From positions 1 through 21,662 of IMG/VR virus record IMGVR_UViG_3300009164_000406: DNA of 21,662 nt; one strand, given 5' to 3'. Positions 3,264 to 18,847 of the stretch are shown piece after piece. Position numbers and translations under genes: made by a program. Position 1 is the stretch's first letter. Each line of letters starts with the position of its first letter. Below the pieces are notes generated by a model. That model was given only the letters and a program-made list of their open reading frames with translations, searched no databases and was not told the DNA's origin. This DNA is from a virus.

Positions 3264-3998
3264 ATGGGGTACGCATCACGGTCAGGACGCGCCAGAACAG
3301 ACGCCCGCAACCCGCGAGCTTTTGCCGTCTGCGACCGTTGCGCCATCTGGTACAACCATAACCAGCTTACTTGGCAGTATGACTGGGCTGGCGCGTCTCT
3401 TGTCAACAAACGCATCTTGGTCTGCAATACGTGCTATGACACGCCTCAAGAGCAACTTCGTGCCATTATCGTGCCTGCCGATCCCGTCCCGATTGTGAAC
3501 CCGCGCGTTGAGCCATACGCTTGGGACGAGATCGACCGCCGTCAGGTGTCTGGTTATGACACAACGAGCCAAGTGACTGGTATCCCGGTTCAGGCTGGCC
3601 CCTCTCGCGCGACGACTATCAATAGCACTGTGCCGGATGGCATTCGTGTCACGCAGCAGACTGGCGAAGCTCCGGGCGGCAAGAACCAACTGCCCGGCAC
3701 CGACCCAAATGCCGTGACATTCAGAAATGTTGTCTCTGTCACGAACAATGGCATTGGGGTAATTCGGATCACGGTTAGCCTGACTTCAGGGTTCATCACC
3801 GGCCAGCGTGTCATCATTCAGGAAGTTGCTGGCGTCACCAATGCCAATGGGCGTTGGACGATCACGGTCATCAACCCGCAGCAGTTTGACCTTCAGAACT
3901 CCAGTTTCGCTGGCGCGTACACCAGCGGCGGATATGTTATAAATGATCCAAGCTTGCCTTATGGGTTCGATCAAATCCCGCGCACTGGACCTCTCTGA
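3264..3998 (+). CDS. Zinc-ribbon structural protein with C-terminal FCCH-like domain
   Basis: The product has 244 residues from the ATG at 3264, with an AAGGGGA-type ribosome site just upstream. The N-terminus ([18 protein letters not shown] ... [22 protein letters not shown]) matches a phage protein common next to adaptor genes. C23/C26 and C54/C57 form two CxxC pairs able to hold one zinc ion. Residues about 80-150 look like a flexible linker. Residues about 155-226 form a small beta module ([21 protein letters not shown] ... FDLQNSSF ... TSGGYV) like the FCCH-type module that recurs in phage tail proteins; a related module lies in the gp10-like protein. Its stop overlaps the first fibre start (TGATG). 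It may link the neck to fibres. Confidence 0.7.
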
Positions 3999-6193
3999 TG
4001 CCCACATACTCTAGTAACATCCAAATCCCCAATCTTGGCGCTGTCACTTCGCTGAATGGCACGGAACAGATTGAGGTGGTGCAAGCTGGCGTATCCAAGC
4101 GGGCTACGACGCTACAGCTTGCCAATCTGCTGGGTGGCGGTGCTACGGGGCCTATCGGGCCAGTAGGCGCGACGGGACCAACCGGCCCCACGGGTAACTC
4201 TGGCCCCACCGGTCCTACGGGAGTGCAGGGCGTCACCGGACCAACGGGGCCAACTGGCCCCACCGGGCCTACAGGGCCTACGGGTTTTGGTGCCACCGGC
4301 CCCACCGGCCCCACCGGGATACAGGGAATTACCGGGCCTACCGGCCCCACGGGTGCCACGGGCGCAGCTTCAACCGTCGCCGGTCCAACGGGCCCCACAG
4401 GGCCCACGGGAGCCACAGGGGCGAATTCAACAGTCGCAGGCCCCACTGGGCCCACCGGCCCCACTGGAGCCACCGGAGCAGCATCCACTGTGGCTGGCCC
4501 GACTGGTCCTACGGGTCCAACTGGCGCTACGGGAGCCGCTTCTACAGTCGCGGGGCCTACTGGTCCAACCGGGCCTACGGGTGCAACAGGAAACGGCGGT
4601 CCAACTGGCGCAACCGGCGCAGCTTCAACCGTCGCTGGCCCCACCGGCCCCACCGGGCCTACTGGTGCCACAGGGGCCGCCTCTACGGTTGCGGGCCCGA
4701 CAGGCCCTACCGGCCCCACGGGCGCCACGGGTGCCACGGGCGCAGCTTCCACGGTTGCAGGGCCTACGGGGCCTACTGGTTCTGCCTCAACAGTTGCCGG
4801 CCCCACAGGCCCCACTGGCCCTACAGGAGCATCCTCCACTGTCGCGGGGCCGACGGGTCCAACGGGTCCAACTGGCGCTGCGTCTTCAGTGGCTGGTCCC
4901 ACTGGCCCCACTGGCCCCGCTGGGACAGGGACAAATATATCTGTTTCAGACGAAGGTTCACTGCTTACGTCAAGTGTGACAAGCTTCAATTTTGTTGGAA
5001 CTGGTGTGACTGCAACGGCTGCGACCAATGCTGTTACTGTGACAATTCCCGGAGGCGCTAGTTTTACGTGGCAAACTGTAAAAACAGCTAGTTTTACCGC
5101 AGTTGTTGGAAACGCATATCCGGTCAATACAACATCTGGAGCGGTGACAGTTACGCTTCCTGCCAGCCCATCTGCTGGTGAGGTTGTTCAGATAACGGAC
5201 TATGCGGGGACGTTTGGAACAAATATTTGTACAGTTAATCCCAATGGTGGAAAATTAAATGGAATAGCAACTAACGCAAATTTTTCTATATCCCGTGAAA
5301 GTGTTGCCATCGTTTACATTGATTCAACGCAGGGGTGGATTGCATATTCCGGTTTTGCAAATACTCCTCTAATTACTCAATACACTGCATCTTATCTCAT
5401 TACTGCTGGAGGAGGAGGTGGTGGAACATGGATTGGCGGCGGCGGCGGTGCTGGTGGCCTTCTAACAGGAACAACAACTTTTACGCCCGGCACAGTTTAT
5501 TCCGCTGTTATTGGTGCTGGTGGCGCTGGATCTTCAAGCAGAGCCTCTTCTGGAACAAGTGGGTCTACCACTACATTTACAGGATTAACATCTCCAACTG
5601 GGGGCGGCGGCGGCGGGTCATATACCTCTGGTGGAGCACCTTCAACCCCCGGCAGCGGTGGTTCTGGAGGTGGTGGCTCAGGCTATCCTTCTAACTCTTC
5701 ACCGGGTGGCTCTGGAACATCTGGTCAGGGCAGTGCGGGTGGAACAGGGGCATCAGCATCTCCGTATGGCGGTGGTGGTGGTGGCGGCGCATCTGCCGTT
5801 GGCGGGGTGCAATCTGGAACAACCGCTGGCGCTGGCGGCGCTGGCACAGCATCATCAATTACAGGATCATCAGTCACTTATGCAGGCGGCGGCGGAGGCT
5901 CTCCTACTAGTGGTGCTAATACTGGCGGCTCTGGAGGTGCGGGCGGTGGCGGTGCCGGTGGAAATGGAGGGGCTGCTGGAACAGCAGGCACTGCAAATAT
6001 TGGTGGTGGTGGCGGCGGCGGAAGCAATGATGGTACAAATGCTTTGGCCGGCGGAACTGGTGGATCTGGCGTTGTAATTATTTCAATTCCAACAGCCAAT
6101 TACACTGGCACGGTAACTGGTTCCCCTACAGTTACGACATCAGGGTCTAACACCATCATTAAATTTACCGGATCAGGGAGCTATACGGCATGA
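3998..6193 (+). CDS. Collagen-like tail fibre with polyglycine adhesin domain
   Basis: The product has 731 residues. Residues 1-46 form an anchor-like domain ([20 protein letters not shown]) shared with the second collagen-like fibre. Residues about 50-308 are Gly-X-Y repeats, mostly Gly-Pro-Thr, interrupted ten times by a (A/N/S)-S-T/S-V-A break. Residues 310-465 are a beta-rich domain. Residues 466 to about 695 are glycine-rich, with runs of five to seven Gly, and end with [11 protein letters not shown] and a final strand segment. This matches the polyglycine domain of phage adhesins (T4-like gp38 type), which exposes loops for receptor binding. The likely role is a trimeric receptor-binding fibre. 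The Gly-Pro-Thr threonines could be O-glycosylated; the fusion enzyme at 9847-12174 is a candidate. Confidence 0.85.
4145..4923 (+). repeat. Collagen-like Gly-X-Y coding repeat, first fibre
   Basis: The region encodes about 260 residues of Gly-X-Y, dominated by Gly-Pro-Thr. At DNA level the repeats vary by synonymous third bases (CCA/CCC/CCT/CCG and ACA/ACC/ACG/ACT mixed), so protein repetition is kept while long perfect DNA repeats are avoided. The opposite strand is also open over this stretch, a by-product of composition. Confidence 0.9.
5394..6090 (+). repeat. Glycine-rich low-complexity coding region
   Basis: Dense runs of GGN codons, including GGCGGCGGCGGC-type tracts near 5438, 5600, 5770 and 6000, encode the polyglycine adhesin domain of the first fibre. 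Such tracts can slip during replication and change loop lengths in steps of one Gly. Confidence 0.8.
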
Positions 6194-6725: not shown

Positions 6726-7924
<1,199 letters not shown>

Positions 7925-7925
<1 letters not shown>

Positions 7926-8407
7926 TGGCTGTTACAGCAACCCCAATTTTCGCCCAGACCGCCAACGTAGGCGCGCTGAATGCGATTATCTCAACCGCGA
8001 TGACTAACACCACTGCCTTTGATGGCACGATGGCGGCGGGCACTGCAATGGCGCTCTGCTACACGGCAGGCGCAAACGGGTCTCGCATTGACCAGATACA
8101 AATTAAGTTTGCGTCTACCAACGGCGCAACTGCTTCGGGAACATCGTCCGCTACGTTGGTTCGCCTTTGGATCAATAACGGTTCTGTAAATACCACAGCA
8201 GGAAACAACATTTTCTTGGGTGAAGTGGCGATGCCTGCAACTACTGTGACTGCGCTTGGGACGACCGCTAACACCGTGTACGGTCTTGCGGTTCCTGTTG
8301 GCGGGCTCAATATCCCTGCGGGTTATCGCATCTATGCTGGCCTCACCGTTGCTGCTGGCGGCACCAATATCGCTATTGCAATCAACACCATCGGTGGAGA
8401 TTACTAA
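7925..8407 (+). CDS. Small beta-rich appendage protein
   Basis: The product has 160 residues and its ATG overlaps the preceding fibre stop (TAATG). The start MAVTATPIFAQT, the phrase CYTAGANGSRIDQIQIKF, the strand RLWINNGS and the end LNIPAGYRIYAGLTVAAGG ... IAINTIGGDY resemble a common class of phage proteins encoded with fibre genes. It looks all-beta, rich in Ala, Thr and Gly, without enzyme motifs. It could form the tip of the preceding collagen-like fibre, which lacks a large C-terminal head, or a small decoration on the tail. Its stop again overlaps the next start (TAATG), giving a coupled three-gene fibre operon. Confidence 0.65.
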
Positions 8408-9510
8408 TGAGCGTCCCACAACAACTTTCTGGCTTTAACAATCAGCTTCCACCACGCCAGCCGATTAGAAACATCACGGCTGCGTATCAAGTCACGGGCG
8501 CTGATTACGGCCAGACTCTTAGTTGTACGGGGGCAACATCATATACTGTTTCGCTAACTTCTGCGGCGTCTATTGGGGCGGGATTTAATTTTACTATTTG
8601 GAATAGAAGCACTTCGGCAACAACCATAATAACAATTGATCCAAACGGGTCTGAAACTATAGATGGAAAAACAACTCGCACAATTTACATTGGAGAGGGT
8701 CTACAAATAATTTGTGATGGGTCTAATTGGCAAACGGGATCAAAAAAGACAATGCGGGCCTATGCTGAAAACATAGCGTCCGGCACTCAAGCAACTGCCA
8801 CAGGCTCCAGTTCTGTTGCCATTGGGTATAACGCAGCTTCATCTCAGACTAGCAGTATATCGTTTGGGGCTCTTGCATCTTCGTCGGGTTCGTATGGCTC
8901 TGCAATCGGGCATCTTGCAGCAGCTTCTGGTGCATATTCTGTTGCCATTGGCTGGTCAACAATAGCTTCAAGCACAAGTTCTGTTGCCATCGGATTTAGT
9001 GCTCAAGCATCAGGGCTAGCTTCTTTTGCTTTAGGCTCGTTTTGTAAAAGTCCATATGAAGGCAAATATGCTTATGCCTGTGATTTTATTTCCTCCGCGT
9101 CTGACAGCCAATATGGGCTAACGGTGCTACATGGAGGCACAACAACCGCAACACCTTTGATTCTATGGGCCGGGTCTTCAGGGTTTGCAACTGCAAACAA
9201 TCAAGTCATTCTACCCGACAATTCGGCTTACACTTTTAGTATTCTTGTTGTTGCGCGACAATCCGCTGCGGGAGGAACAGCTTCTGCTGCTTGGAAAATA
9301 GAAGGTCTAATTCGCCGTGAAAGTGGTGTTGCGACCACAACAATTGTGGGGACTCCAACAACAACGGTAATTAGTAATGTTCCCGGATGGTCTATTGCCG
9401 TGTCCGCTGATACGACAAACGGGTGTCTTGCGCTTACGGCTACTGGCGCAAGTGCTACAAATATCAACTGGTCGGCCACCGTCCAAACATCTGAAGTCAC
9501 TTACGCATAG
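8407..9510 (+). CDS. Tail fibre with YadA-head-like repeats
   Basis: The product has 367 residues. Residues about 20-115 form a beta-rich N-terminal domain (VTGADYGQTLSCTGATSYTVSLTS, IDPNGSETIDG). Residues about 120-212 hold several copies of an S-V-A-I-G / A-A-S-G repeat, the pattern of the left-handed parallel beta-roll in YadA-type trimeric adhesin heads. Residues about 235-367 (SQYGLTVLHGGTT, VILPDNSAYTFSILVVARQS, KIEGLIRRE ... NINWSATVQTSEVTYA) look like a C-terminal domain recurrent in phage fibres and prophage appendages. The likely role is a trimeric receptor-binding or side-fibre protein. No intramolecular chaperone Ser/Asp motif is recognisable. Confidence 0.75.
   Translation: MSVPQQLSGFNNQLPPRQPIRNITAAYQVTGADYGQTLSCTGATSYTVSLTSAASIGAGFNFTIWNRSTSATTIITIDPNGSETIDGKTTRTIYIGEGLQIICDGSNWQTGSKKTMRAYAENIASGTQATATGSSSVAIGYNAASSQTSSISFGALASSSGSYGSAIGHLAAASGAYSVAIGWSTIASSTSSVAIGFSAQASGLASFALGSFCKSPYEGKYAYACDFISSASDSQYGLTVLHGGTTTATPLILWAGSSGFATANNQVILPDNSAYTFSILVVARQSAAGGTASAAWKIEGLIRRESGVATTTIVGTPTTTVISNVPGWSIAVSADTTNGCLALTATGASATNINWSATVQTSEVTYA
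8764..9042 (+). repeat. YadA-head-like coding repeats
   Basis: Several imperfect units of about 14-16 residues with the core S-V-A-I-G followed by A-S-G/S-S occur within the fibre at 8407-9510, for example SSVAIGYNAASS, SAIGHLAAASG, YSVAIGWSTIASS and SSVAIGFSAQASG. Confidence 0.75.
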
Positions 9511-9518
9511 GGTGCAGC

Positions 9519-9818
9519 ATGGCAATCCAACTTGATCTTCAAACTACTCAATATGGGATTGGTTTTCAGGGTGCATATTTTCGCATTTTGAAAACATTCA
9601 TTTGTCGCGAAGAAAATCCCGCCGCCCGCTTTAGCGTCACAATTGACGTTGTTGGTTATGCGGGCCAACCACAGAATGCCAATCAAAAAGACATAGAGTG
9701 GCGGCAATATCGCGCACCTATGGACCAGATTGAAGTTCAATCCGGTGACAACTTTTTGGCGCGTTGCTACGAATGGGTAATGGCGCAACCTGACATGGTT
9801 GGCGCTGTGGCCGTGTAA
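9519..9818 (+). CDS. Conserved small phage protein of the fibre module
   Basis: The product has 99 residues from the ATG at 9519, with AGGGTG just after the preceding stop as a weak ribosome site. The pattern MAIQLDLQTTQYGIGFQGAY, RFSVTIDVVGYAGQP and FLARCYEWVMAQPDMVGAVAV is one I know from small phage proteins encoded beside fibre genes. It mixes short strands with a C-terminal helix. Function is not established; a fibre attachment or assembly role is possible. It is the last small gene before the glycosyltransferase fusion, separated by 28 bases. Confidence 0.65.
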   Translation: MAIQLDLQTTQYGIGFQGAYFRILKTFICREENPAARFSVTIDVVGYAGQPQNANQKDIEWRQYRAPMDQIEVQSGDNFLARCYEWVMAQPDMVGAVAV

Positions 9819-9846: not shown

Positions 9847-12174
9847 ATGCCGTTTAGCTCAAAAGATGGTAAAAAGCACATCGAAAATATCGTATCTCGG
9901 CTTCCGCACCAAAGGATGCTTGATATTGGCTGTGGGTGCGGAACCTACGCCAAAATGTTCCCAGACGCTGACTGGACTGGCGTGGAAATATGGGGGGCAT
10001 ACGTTGAGAAGTATGGTCTTGCGGGTTTGTATGGCAAACTTCACATTGAAGATGCTCGCATATGGACCCCAACGGATCATTATGACGTAGCCTTTGCTGG
10101 CGATGTTCTTGAGCATATGACGGTTGATGAGGCCAAAAGTCTGTTGGCCCGCCTTAAGTCATGCGCCGATACGGTTGTTGTCAGCATTCCGATTGGGCAT
10201 TACCCACAGGAAGAATATGGGGGCAACCCTCACGAAGCACACGTCACCGACAATTGGACTGACGAAGAGGTTCGCCGGGTGTTTGGTGAGCCAAGCTGGG
10301 CACATGTCGATGGCGAGATTGGCGTCTACATTTGGTCTAAACACCCGATCAGGCTCAAAATTTGCGTCTACGCGATCAGCAAGAATGAAGCGCACTTCAT
10401 CCAACGGTTTTGCGAGTCTGCCAAAGAGGCCGACATGATCCTGATCGCGGACACTGGCAGCACTGACGGGCTACCGGAAGAGGCTGAAAGGCATGGCGCA
10501 ATTGTCCACCACATCAGCATCAGCCCGTGGCGTTTTGACACTGCCAGAAATGCGGCTTTGGCGCTCGTCCCGCGCGATATGGATGTCTGCATCAGTCTCG
10601 ACATTGATGAGGTTCTTCAGCCCGGCTGGCGTGAGGAGATTGAACGTGTATGGGTCAAAGGCGAGACGACCAGACTGCGCTACATGTTTGATTGGGGCTG
10701 CGGCATCAACTTCTATTACGAGAAAATTCATGCCAAGCACGGCTACATGTGGCACCACCCCTGCCACGAATATCCAATCCCTGACGGGCGGATCACGGAA
10801 GTCTGGGCGCAGACAGACATGCTGCTTGCCGTCCACAAGCCCGACCCGACCAAGAGCCGGGGGCAGTACATGGATCTTCTGGAACTTTCTGTAAGGGAAG
10901 ACCCCCAGTGCCCGCGCAACGCCTTCTACTACGCCAGAGAGTTGAGCTTCCACGCCCGCTGGCAGGACAGCATCGACGCCTGCAAGAACTATCTGGGCCT
11001 CCCACGCGCCACATGGATGAACGAGCGGTGCTACGCCTACCGTGTCATGGGCCGCTGCTACAGTGAGCTTGGCAACGCAGCGGAGGCCGAAAAGGCGTTC
11101 CAGATGGCGGCGTCTGAGGCCCCCAACACCCGTGAGCCGTGGTGTGAGTTGGCGATCTTGTGCTACCGCCAACAGCGTTGGGAGGAGTGCTTTGCCTACT
11201 CCATGCGGGCGCTGCAAATCACAAATCGGGAAGCGGTTTATACCTGTGACCCAGCAGTTTGGGGCTATCAGGCGCATGACTTGGCGGCGATTTCGGCTTG
11301 GAATCTTGGCATCAAAGACATTGCCATCAAACAGGGCCAGATTGCCGTCGATCTGGAGCCACATGATGAGCGCCTGAAGGCCAACCTGAAGTTCTTCAAA
11401 GGCATCCAGAACGCGCCAAATGTTGTCCACTTCATCTATTTTGGCGGCGAAGGCTCCCGGCCCTACAGCTACACGAACTATCTGGCGGTCAGGGCTGCGG
11501 CGGATGTCCAGAAGCCCAGTGAAATCATCATGTGGTGCGATGATGAGCCGGTTGGCAATCCAAATTGGGACGCAATCCGGCCATATGTCACGATCAGGCA
11601 TGTGTCTGCGCCCAAGACGATCTGCGGCATGGAACTGAAATACCGGCACTATCAGTCCGATGTTTTTCGCCTGCGGACCCTGCATGAGCATGGCGGCATC
11701 TATCTGGACAACGATCTGGTCCTCACCAAATCGCTGGCACCCCTTATGAGCGACAAGATCGTAATGGGGTATGACGCGCCAGACACGGTGGATTCCATTG
11801 CCAATGCGGTCATCATCTGCCCTCCCGGCCATGAGTTCATCGACATCTGGCTGGCGCGTATGGCCGACCGGATCAGTGAGAAGTGGGCTGATCACTCGGT
11901 TGTGCTTGCCGCCGACTTGGCAAAAGAGTTCCCGCACCTGATCCAAGTGGAGCCGTATACATCATTCATCCCATTCCATTGGGACAATAGAGCGATCTTT
12001 GACGAGACTGGCGACGGCGCTGATCTTACCAATGCCTATGGCGTACACCTCTGGGAGACGTTCTGGGGGGAAACACTGGCTCGCCTTAACGATGAATATC
12101 TGGCATATTCAACCAGTCAGTTCGCCGGCCTATTTGGCGCGTATGCAACCAAGTCAGCAATGGCAGCAGAGTGA
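9847..12174 (+). CDS. Methyltransferase-GT2-TPR-GT32 fusion glycan-modifying enzyme
   Basis: The product has 775 residues from the ATG at 9847, preceded by GAGGGGGG at 9835-9842. Residues 20-165 are a class I SAM methyltransferase (MLDIGCGCGTY at 24-34, GDVLEHM at 85-91). Residues 171 to about 335 are a GT2 glycosyltransferase (ISKNE, IADTGSTDG at 200-208, SLDIDE with the D-x-D at 252-254). Residues about 340-515 hold TPR-like helical pairs (ELGNAAEAEKAFQMA). Residues 523-775 are a GT32-type glycosyltransferase (SDVFRLRTLHEHGGIYLDND, D-x-D at 621-623). GT2 plus TPR recalls SunS-type enzymes, which glycosylate peptides. No membrane segment or signal is visible, so it acts in the cytoplasm. Its place after the Gly-Pro-Thr-rich fibres suggests fibre glycosylation; host surface glycan modification is the alternative. 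All visible catalytic motifs look intact. Confidence 0.85.
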   Translation: MPFSSKDGKKHIENIVSRLPHQRMLDIGCGCGTYAKMFPDADWTGVEIWGAYVEKYGLAGLYGKLHIEDARIWTPTDHYDVAFAGDVLEHMTVDEAKSLLARLKSCADTVVVSIPIGHYPQEEYGGNPHEAHVTDNWTDEEVRRVFGEPSWAHVDGEIGVYIWSKHPIRLKICVYAISKNEAHFIQRFCESAKEADMILIADTGSTDGLPEEAERHGAIVHHISISPWRFDTARNAALALVPRDMDVCISLDIDEVLQPGWREEIERVWVKGETTRLRYMFDWGCGINFYYEKIHAKHGYMWHHPCHEYPIPDGRITEVWAQTDMLLAVHKPDPTKSRGQYMDLLELSVREDPQCPRNAFYYARELSFHARWQDSIDACKNYLGLPRATWMNERCYAYRVMGRCYSELGNAAEAEKAFQMAASEAPNTREPWCELAILCYRQQRWEECFAYSMRALQITNREAVYTCDPAVWGYQAHDLAAISAWNLGIKDIAIKQGQIAVDLEPHDERLKANLKFFKGIQNAPNVVHFIYFGGEGSRPYSYTNYLAVRAAADVQKPSEIIMWCDDEPVGNPNWDAIRPYVTIRHVSAPKTICGMELKYRHYQSDVFRLRTLHEHGGIYLDNDLVLTKSLAPLMSDKIVMGYDAPDTVDSIANAVIICPPGHEFIDIWLARMADRISEKWADHSVVLAADLAKEFPHLIQVEPYTSFIPFHWDNRAIFDETGDGADLTNAYGVHLWETFWGETLARLNDEYLAYSTSQFAGLFGAYATKSAMAAE

Positions 12175-12419
12175 TGAGGTTTGGCCCCGTGGATCAATCA
12201 ACGATCAATATGGTCTTTGGGGCCATTCTAGCGGTATCCGGTTGGTTCTTTCGAATGCTATGGGAAGCAGTCCAAACGCTGAAAGACGATTTGCACAAAG
12301 TTCAAATTGATTTGCCGGTAAACTACGTTCGAAAAGACGATCTCGACAAGCGGATGGATCACATAGAAACGATGTTCCAGCGCATCTATGACAAGTTAGA
12401 CGGGAAGGCTGACAAATGA
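12174..12419 (+). CDS. Small membrane protein of the lysis cassette
   Basis: The product has 81 residues. The ATG at 12174 shares its A with the preceding stop (TGATG); a GTG at 12171 would add one residue and is less likely. Residues about 11-30 form one transmembrane helix (INMVFGAILAVSGWFFRMLW), followed by a charged, probably coiled-coil cytoplasmic or periplasmic part with YVRKDDLDKR and ending in DKLDGKADK. Such one-helix proteins are common beside phage holin genes. It could be a holin partner or antiholin; no defined function is proven. The stop overlaps the next start (ATGA). Confidence 0.7.
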   Translation: MRFGPVDQSTINMVFGAILAVSGWFFRMLWEAVQTLKDDLHKVQIDLPVNYVRKDDLDKRMDHIETMFQRIYDKLDGKADK

Positions 12420-18358: not shown

Positions 18359-18847
18359 ATGCTTGACGATCTTGGTATCAGGGTAGCGCAGCCGGAAGAC
18401 ATCCATGAGCTTATGGATGTGGCAATGAGTGCCTGTTCAGAGAATGGGTTCATAAATCCCAATGTAAACAAGCTCTTAGAGCAAATCTGGTCCGCAGTTA
18501 ATCTTGACAATGGCATTGTCGGGGCGATTGGGGAGCCGGGAAAAATTGAAGGCGCAGTGCTACTCAGGTTGACAGATATGTGGTACTCTGACGATAAGGT
18601 GCTGGAAGAAAAGGGGATTTTCATTCTTCCGCAGTTTCGCGTTGCTAAGGGTGGGAGAGCGCGAAGGCTATGTGAATTTGCCAAAAGGGCGGCTGAAATG
18701 TTGGATGTACCGTTGTTGATCGGGGTTCTGTCCAACGACCGCACTGAGGCTAAGGTTAGGTTGTATGAGCGTCAATTTGGCAAGCCAACTGGCGCGTTCT
18801 TCCTCTATAATGCTCGTACAGGGTCTGTGCGAGAAGCAGCGGAGTAG
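18359..18847 (+). CDS. GNAT-like acetyltransferase in the tail gene cluster
   Basis: The product has 162 residues from the ATG at 18359, with GGGGAAG about 18349-18355. The order of elements fits a GNAT fold: IRVAQPEDIHELMDVAM at the start, NGIVGAIGE and IEGAVLLRLTDMWYSD as central strands, then FILPQFRVAKGGRARRLCEFAKR as the strand and acetyl-CoA loop/helix (residues 88-110), and LLIGVLSN, LYERQFGKPTGAFFLY at the end. The acetyl-CoA loop is not the textbook Q/R-x-x-G-x-G/A but the layout is close. Similar genes recur at this place in related phages. The substrate is unknown; a virion or host protein is possible. Confidence 0.7.
   Translation: MLDDLGIRVAQPEDIHELMDVAMSACSENGFINPNVNKLLEQIWSAVNLDNGIVGAIGEPGKIEGAVLLRLTDMWYSDDKVLEEKGIFILPQFRVAKGGRARRLCEFAKRAAEMLDVPLLIGVLSNDRTEAKVRLYERQFGKPTGAFFLYNARTGSVREAAE

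What the first reader, a model, noticed from the sequence alone, without database searches (positions are those of the whole stretch)
9847..12174. Single phage enzyme joining SAM methyltransferase, GT2, TPR and GT32
One 775-residue product holds three apparently intact catalytic modules: a SAM motif at residues 24-34, a GT2 D-x-D at 252-254 and a GT32 D-x-D at 621-623. TPR helices lie between the two glycosyltransferases. Such a combination could start a glycan, extend it and methyl-cap it. The GT2-TPR part recalls peptide glycosyltransferases such as SunS. I do not recall this exact three-enzyme order as a described phage protein.
Basis: partly seen in the sequence, partly recalled or inferred. 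Interest (0 to 1): 0.75.

Follow-up and report, generated by a model that had tools for sequence, protein, structure and literature searches.

The report
Phage enzyme likely sugar-coats tail fibres
This phage gene makes one protein joining a methyltransferase to two sugar-adding enzymes, and comparison with relatives suggests that it decorates threonines in the phage's own collagen-like tail fibres, as a related bacterial enzyme does on spores, and may then extend and methyl-cap the sugar.

Summary
Window 9847-12174 (+) encodes one 775-residue protein: class I methyltransferase (MT, about 1-167), GT2 (169-340), TPR (341-520) and GT32-type GT-A domain (523-770), with all three motifs conserved in relatives. 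The order recurs: at least nine viral loci carry MT-GT2-TPR-GT32, and the same GT2-TPR core also occurs alone, MT-fused, GT32-fused, or with GT32 in the middle.

The core folds like SunS/ThuS and has the layout of C. difficile SgtA, which puts O-GlcNAc on threonines of the collagen repeats of BclA3, its neighbour gene. Bacterial relatives of the core sit just downstream of collagen-like genes. So do the phage genes, behind collagen-like tail fibres. In both sets the Y position is about 63% Thr, and the window's two fibres hold 90 GPT triplets. In collagen-bearing viral contigs chosen without reference to the enzyme, the core accompanies Thr-rich far more often than Thr-poor collagen.

Best reading: a tail-fibre collagen O-glycosyltransferase with optional extension (GT32) and cap (MT) modules. 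Activity, donors and acceptor are inferred.

The parts
9847..12174 (+). Gene for the 775-aa MT-GT2-TPR-GT32 protein (P0001)
   Evidence: ATG 9847 preceded by AAAGAGGGGGG
9847..10347 (+). Residues 1-167: class I SAM-dependent methyltransferase domain; motif I LDIGCGCGTY (25-34); conserved SIP...PQ.E..GNP.E.H...W signature
   Evidence: Pfam 18/19 family members; profile match to PDB methyltransferase 3cc8, E 5e-8; AF2 blocks mostly 87-97 pLDDT
10351..10866 (+). Residues 169-340: GT2 (GT-A) domain, D202, D252-x-D254, H307-E308 conserved
   Evidence: Pfam PF00535; GmaR E 3.7e-8 and ThuS E 1.2e-5 by profile; SunS/ThuS top fold matches
10867..11406 (+). Residues 341-520: TPR helices, probable acceptor-binding part of the SgtA/SunS-type core
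   Evidence: Pfam TPR 396-461; helices 342-518 in the model; PHROG 13126 spans 171-523, E 1.4e-99
11413..12171 (+). Residues 523-775: GT32-type GT-A glycosyltransferase, D621-N-D623
   Evidence: Pfam PF04488 10/10 members; own AF2 model pLDDT 88.3, pTM 0.88; fold matches YeGT, PaToxG, SetA E about 1e-8
3998..6193 (+). Collagen-like tail fibre, 731 aa, 42 GPT and 12 GAT triplets: proposed acceptor
   Evidence: PHROG tail fibre and Pfam Collagen/Gly_rich_2; sequence
6726..7925 (+). Collagen-like tail fibre, 399 aa, 48 GPT triplets: proposed acceptor
   Evidence: PHROG tail fibre and Pfam Collagen E 6e-15; sequence
12171..12419 (+). Small downstream gene overlapping the stop (lipoprotein/spanin-like), start of the lysis side
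   Evidence: phrog_462 E 2.4e-11, Rz-like spanin E 0.005

Best explanation
The gene encodes a soluble, multi-step glycan-building enzyme for the phage's own virion. The GT2-TPR core works like C. difficile SgtA: the TPR part holds the acceptor protein and the GT2 part puts a first sugar (probably GlcNAc from host UDP-GlcNAc) on threonines in the G-P-T collagen repeats of the phage tail fibres encoded upstream (3998-6193, 6726-7925). MT and GT32 are optional modules that phages gain and lose on a constant core, so glycan structure can change while acceptor recognition stays. Shown here: domains, order, conserved motifs, modular gain/loss, linkage to Thr-rich collagen in phages and bacteria. Inferred: catalysis, sugar identity, Thr as the residue, order of steps, biological purpose (fibre stability, adsorption specificity or hiding from host and environment).
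For: Top six PDB fold matches are the peptide glycosyltransferases SunS/ThuS; profile hits GmaR, ThuS, SunS. SgtA is 358 aa, GT-A 1-260 plus TPR 262-358, lies beside bclA3, adds beta-O-GlcNAc to Thr of its collagen repeats in vitro, and its loss removes the GlcNAc signal from spores (PMC7157674); the core here is about 350 aa with the same layout. Bacterial relatives of the core (73 analysed, mostly Firmicutes): collagen-like gene at -1 in 24/72 and -2 in 14/55, against 1/69 and 1/65 at +1/+2 (p 2e-11). Phage loci (99 clusters): collagen genes at -1 to -6 in 92 of 412 positions against 6 of 426 downstream. Y-position Thr is 64% in phage and 62% in bacterial loci. Control not selected on the enzyme: 16/111 contigs with Thr-rich collagen carry the core nearby against 1/67 with Thr-poor collagen (Fisher p 0.003; 14 against 0 if only strong hits count). 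Modules change 21 times on the core tree of 83 representatives. The MT homologue of L087/L088 sits in an operon right after a GlcNAc-family GT (PF11397, E 1.6e-57) and a GT2-type gene.
Against: No biochemical evidence; SgtA's own sequence could not be fetched, so direct homology to it was not measured. Phage synteny alone is weak, because tail fibres sit in that region anyway. In the window three small genes (160, 367, 99 aa) lie between the nearest collagen fibre and the enzyme. 95 of 111 Thr-rich collagen contigs showed no core in the fetched stretch, so the association is not obligatory (stretches are short and other GTs were not sought). MT hits for the window itself are slightly below Pfam cut-offs, and its substrate is unknown. 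Inter-domain placement in the model is uncertain (pTM 0.62).
Confidence: 0.68

Rival explanations
1. The enzyme modifies the host surface (LPS/LOS, O-antigen or capsule) to exclude superinfecting phages, the usual reading of phage glycosyltransferases near tail genes.
For: PHROG 13126 is named beta-1,4-glycosyltransferase and PaBG's relative is annotated as LOS beta-1,4-glucosyltransferase. Papers on aquatic phages propose host surface or DNA modification for such genes (PMC7029224, PMC10202952).
Against: The core's nearest folds are peptide/protein glycosyltransferases, its bacterial relatives travel with collagen-like genes, and the collagen linkage depends on Thr content. The annotations rest on similarity only.
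Confidence: 0.13
2. It glycosylates a different virion protein (for example the YadA-like 367-aa protein at 8407-9510, the small proteins beside it, or capsid), the collagen link being a by-product of gene order.
For: In the window the genes next to the enzyme are 8407-9510 and 9519-9818, not the collagen fibres; the same trio (c23, c32, c33) precedes the enzyme in L002, L064 and L070. Virion glycosylation at other sites is known in mycobacteriophages (cited in PMC10955285).
Against: Those neighbours vary between loci, while Thr-rich collagen recurs in phages and independently in bacteria.
Confidence: 0.13
3. It glycosylates or methylates phage DNA bases or a small molecule.
For: Phage GTs do this in T-even phages (general knowledge), and MT domains are common on DNA.
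Against: No similarity to DNA glucosyltransferases or DNA methylases in Pfam, PHROGs, NCBIfam or PDB searches; late structural location.
Confidence: 0.03

Closest known systems
SgtA of Clostridioides difficile (BclA3 O-GlcNAc transferase; PMC7157674)
   Same: GT-A domain followed by TPR in about 355 aa; gene linked to a collagen-like protein; acceptor region is collagen repeat with Thr
   Different: SgtA has no MT or GT32 and acts on a spore coat protein, not a phage fibre; direct sequence comparison with SgtA could not be made here
SunS / ThuS S-glycosyltransferases
   Same: Best PDB fold and profile matches for the GT2-TPR core
   Different: They modify cysteine of a bacteriocin peptide encoded beside them (general knowledge); no such peptide was recognised here
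PBCV-1 A064R (PMC9614988)
   Same: One viral polypeptide with two GTs and an MT that builds and methyl-caps a glycan on the virus's own structural protein
   Different: Order GT-GT-MT, no TPR, algal giant virus, N-glycan of the capsid; it finishes a glycan rather than starting it
Mimivirus L230 (PMC9614988)
   Same: Viral bifunctional enzyme that glycosylates a viral collagen-like protein
   Different: Hydroxylates lysine then adds glucose; no hydroxylase domain of the PF13640 kind was found in the 61-kb genome
GmaR (Listeria) and FlmG (Caulobacter) flagellin glycosyltransferases
   Same: GT plus protein-binding part; FlmG's TPR domain alone binds its acceptor (PMC7591256); GmaR's GT2 is a profile match
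   Different: FlmG is TPR then GT-B; acceptor is flagellin
UniProt A0A6J5ND39 (uncultured Caudovirales phage, 790 aa)
   Same: Matches over the full length at 53% identity: same protein family
   Different: Named only 'Glycosyltransferase, DXD sugar-binding motif'; no function described

Membership tests
SgtA-type collagen O-glycosyltransferase | N-terminal GT-A/GT2 domain with DxD followed by C-terminal TPR, about 355 aa | tested here: met
SgtA-type collagen O-glycosyltransferase | Gene close to a collagen-like protein rich in G-X-Thr | tested here: met
   Window fibres 3998-6193 and 6726-7925; statistics. Not directly adjacent in the window.
SgtA-type collagen O-glycosyltransferase | Sequence homology to SgtA itself | not testable with these tools
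   C. difficile genome could not be fetched by name; other Clostridia and Bacilli relatives at about 40-50% were seen
SgtA-type collagen O-glycosyltransferase | UDP-GlcNAc transfer to Thr of collagen repeats | not testable with these tools
   needs an assay
SunS/ThuS S-glycosyltransferase | GT2 plus helical repeat fold | tested here: met
SunS/ThuS S-glycosyltransferase | Neighbouring bacteriocin precursor with acceptor cysteine | tested here: not met
   Neighbours are tail, small virion-side and lysis genes in PHROG/Pfam scans; no bacteriocin hit
GT32 / Gly_transf_sug | PF04488 above cut-off with DxD, GT-A fold | tested here: met
   33.6 against 23 bits; fold matches YeGT, PaToxG, SetA, Och1
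Class I SAM methyltransferase | Motif I GxGxG and acidic residue at end of strand 2 | tested here: met
   D26, G28, G30, G32 and E47 invariant in A2; PDB profile E 5e-8
Class I SAM methyltransferase | Curated Pfam cut-off reached by the window sequence itself | tested here: inconclusive
   25.1 against 27 bits when scanned alone; 18/19 relatives hit, best E 2.1e-10
A064R-like trifunctional glycan enzyme | Two GTs plus MT in one viral protein acting on one glycan | tested here: inconclusive
   Domain content met; common glycan not testable; homology to A064R not tested

The most novel reading that the evidence does not exclude
A widespread family of phages builds a custom O-glycan on Thr of collagen-like tail fibres with a modular enzyme whose start module is constant and whose extension (GT32) and cap (MT) modules are swapped; in a sub-lineage the extension module is switched by slippage at an A8/A10/A11 run at the domain border, so that one gene yields short and extended glycan makers.
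Probability: 0.4. Interest if true: 0.78.

Novelty: new variant of a known kind. Interest (0 to 1): 0.62.

Why it matters
Phage genes like this are usually read as tools to protect DNA or alter the host surface. If they decorate the phage's own collagen fibres, then fibre glycosylation would be common in aquatic phages, the glycan would be a separate and fast-changing layer of the adsorption apparatus, and host-range prediction from fibre sequence alone would miss it. The family also offers ready-made enzymes that may start, extend and methylate O-glycans on simple GPT repeats, and makes the question testable with one purified protein and one peptide.

Tried and rejected
Single-sequence PDB search of the MT and GT32 segments gave no significant hit; profiles were needed. 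NCBIfam gave only sub-cut-off hits. The idea that the enzyme is unique to this phage was rejected. Search for an own sugar-nucleotide epimerase and for a 2OG-Fe hydroxylase (hydroxyproline or hydroxylysine route) in the 61-kb genome found none. L083's A8 run at the end of its core was followed by no GT32. L041/L042's apparent N-terminal extension looks, by inspection, like an out-of-register reading of an upstream collagen-type gene. A key mycobacteriophage virion glycosylation paper (PMC10527164) is not held.

Full report
WHAT IS THERE. The frame 9847-12174 (+) is a single 775-residue gene starting at an ATG behind AAAGAGGGGGG. Pfam places GT2, TPR and Gly_transf_sug (GT32-type) above cut-off and Methyltransf_25 just below it. 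With relatives the methyltransferase becomes firm: 18 of 19 members hit, best E 2.1e-10, and the family profile finds the PDB methyltransferase 3cc8 at E 5e-8. The DxD pairs 252/254 and 621/623 and SAM motif I residues D26, G28, G30, G32 are kept. The AlphaFold2 model has mean pLDDT 88.8 but pTM 0.62, so domains are good and their mutual placement is not. A separate model of the GT32 part has pTM 0.88 and matches the GT-A enzymes YeGT, PaToxG and SetA.

THE FAMILY. The window belongs to the same virus as the 61,106-base contig behind L001 (3 mismatches in 12.5 kb); the window crosses that contig's end and start, so the genome looks circular or permuted, about 61 kb. It is podovirus-like by its SU10-type adaptor and 'stabilization protein', nearest MW202675 at 43%. 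The GT2-TPR core is found in about a hundred viral contigs in one scan and more in others. In 151 loci with a near-complete core the architectures are MT-core 74, core 49, MT-GT-core 13, MT-core-GT32 9, core-GT32 6. These numbers reflect how the loci were fetched (full protein, MT, GT32), not natural frequencies, and a few contigs are cut. On a tree of 83 representatives the architecture changes 21 times, and the four-part form needs at least four changes even counting only well-supported branches. The middle domain of the MT-GT-core type is also Gly_transf_sug. GT32 also occurs as a separate upstream gene (L076, L078), and the MT as a separate gene right after a PF11397 GlcNAc-family GT and a GT2-type gene (L087). 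A full-length relative is already in UniProt (A0A6J5ND39, 53% identity).

WHAT THE CORE RESEMBLES. The first six PDB fold matches are SunS and ThuS, and sequence profiles reach GmaR, ThuS and SunS. All are peptide or protein glycosyltransferases or close kin. The C. difficile enzyme SgtA is described as GT-A (1-260) plus four TPRs (262-358), is encoded beside bclA3, and adds beta-O-GlcNAc to threonines of peptides from the BclA3 collagen repeats (PMC7157674). Its layout and length fit the core; the SgtA sequence itself could not be compared.

THE ACCEPTOR. A genome scan returned 80 bacterial relatives of the core, mostly Firmicutes. In the 73 that could be analysed a collagen-like gene stands at position -1 in 24 of 72 and at -2 in 14 of 55, against 1 of 69 and 1 of 65 at +1 and +2. 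In phages collagen-like genes are likewise upstream (92 of 412 positions from -1 to -6, against 6 of 426 downstream). Phage order alone proves little because fibres and lysis genes lie there anyway. The composition is more telling: Y-position Thr is 64% in phage and 62% in bacterial loci. For a control not chosen by the enzyme, viral contigs were fetched by GPT-repeat or GP(K/Q)-repeat DNA patterns. Of contigs with Thr-rich collagen 16 of 111 hold the core family in the fetched stretch, of Thr-poor ones 1 of 67 (p 0.003), or 14 against 0 for strong hits. The window's two fibres hold 42 and 48 GPT triplets.

MECHANISM. Most likely: TPR holds the fibre chain, GT2 starts a sugar on Thr, GT32 extends it, MT caps it. 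The first step is supported by family and linkage; the next two by fusion, by MT and GT32 genes standing beside GTs when not fused, and by the precedent of PBCV-1 A064R, whose two GTs and MT build the end of the capsid glycan (PMC9614988). The phage has no epimerase of the PF01370 kind and no PF13640 hydroxylase, so it probably draws on the host's sugar nucleotides and does not use hydroxylated residues. Sugar identity, linkage and biological role are open.

SLIPPAGE AT THE BORDER. In one set of relatives the GT32 frame follows the core across a run of A at the exact domain border. With A8 (L148) or A11 (L504) it is in frame; with A10 (L146, L151, L505, L494, L520, L147, L518, L521) it is in the -1 frame. 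L494 and L504 are identical over 883 bases except A10/A11; L146 and L148 differ by 13 substitutions and A10/A8 over the gene. The A10 form recurs in clearly diverged lineages, the GT32 frame stays intact, and in L146 it has no start codon in its first 48 codons. This suggests frameshifting, transcriptional slippage or phase variation. Homopolymer assembly error cannot be excluded for single contigs. The window's own border has no such run.

JUDGEMENT. The kind is known (SgtA-type start enzyme; trifunctional viral glycan enzyme); the combination, its place in phages, its modular behaviour and the collagen tail fibre as acceptor were not found described in the searches made, which cover only an open-access library.

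Noticed in passing
L146:3946, L151:4504, L147:4097, L148:2749, and L494, L504, L505, L518, L520, L521: Poly-A run of 8, 10 or 11 at the border of MT-GT2-TPR and GT32; A10 puts GT32 in the -1 frame, A8 and A11 in frame. Possible frameshift, slippage or phase switch of the second glycosyltransferase.
   Followed up: partly
L174, L209, L213 (Desulforamulus, Brevibacillus): Bacterial genes with an MT domain fused to a GT2-TPR-like part lie next to a second, SgtA-like core gene; the fusion is not confined to phages.
   Followed up: partly
L087:4098-6447: Operon of a PF11397 GlcNAc-family transferase, a GT2-type gene and a standalone relative of the MT domain in a 101-kb viral contig.
   Followed up: partly
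window 8407-9510: 367-aa protein with YadA head repeats just upstream of the enzyme; the same three small genes (160, about 350, 99 aa) precede the enzyme in L002, L064 and L070.
   Followed up: no
window 1-21662: The window crosses the end and start of the 61,106-base contig IMGVR_UViG_3300027969_000110, which therefore looks like a complete circular or permuted genome.
   Followed up: partly
window 18359-18847: Acetyltransferase-like gene (phrog_1249) among the virion genes; a putative acetyltransferase stands at the same place in MW202675.
   Followed up: no
L060-L062, L081, L058: In some loci a collagen-like fibre gene lies downstream of the enzyme instead of, or in addition to, upstream.
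   Followed up: no
viral contigs without the core: Most phage contigs with Thr-rich GPT collagen had no core in the fetched stretch; other glycosyltransferases there were not examined.
   Followed up: no
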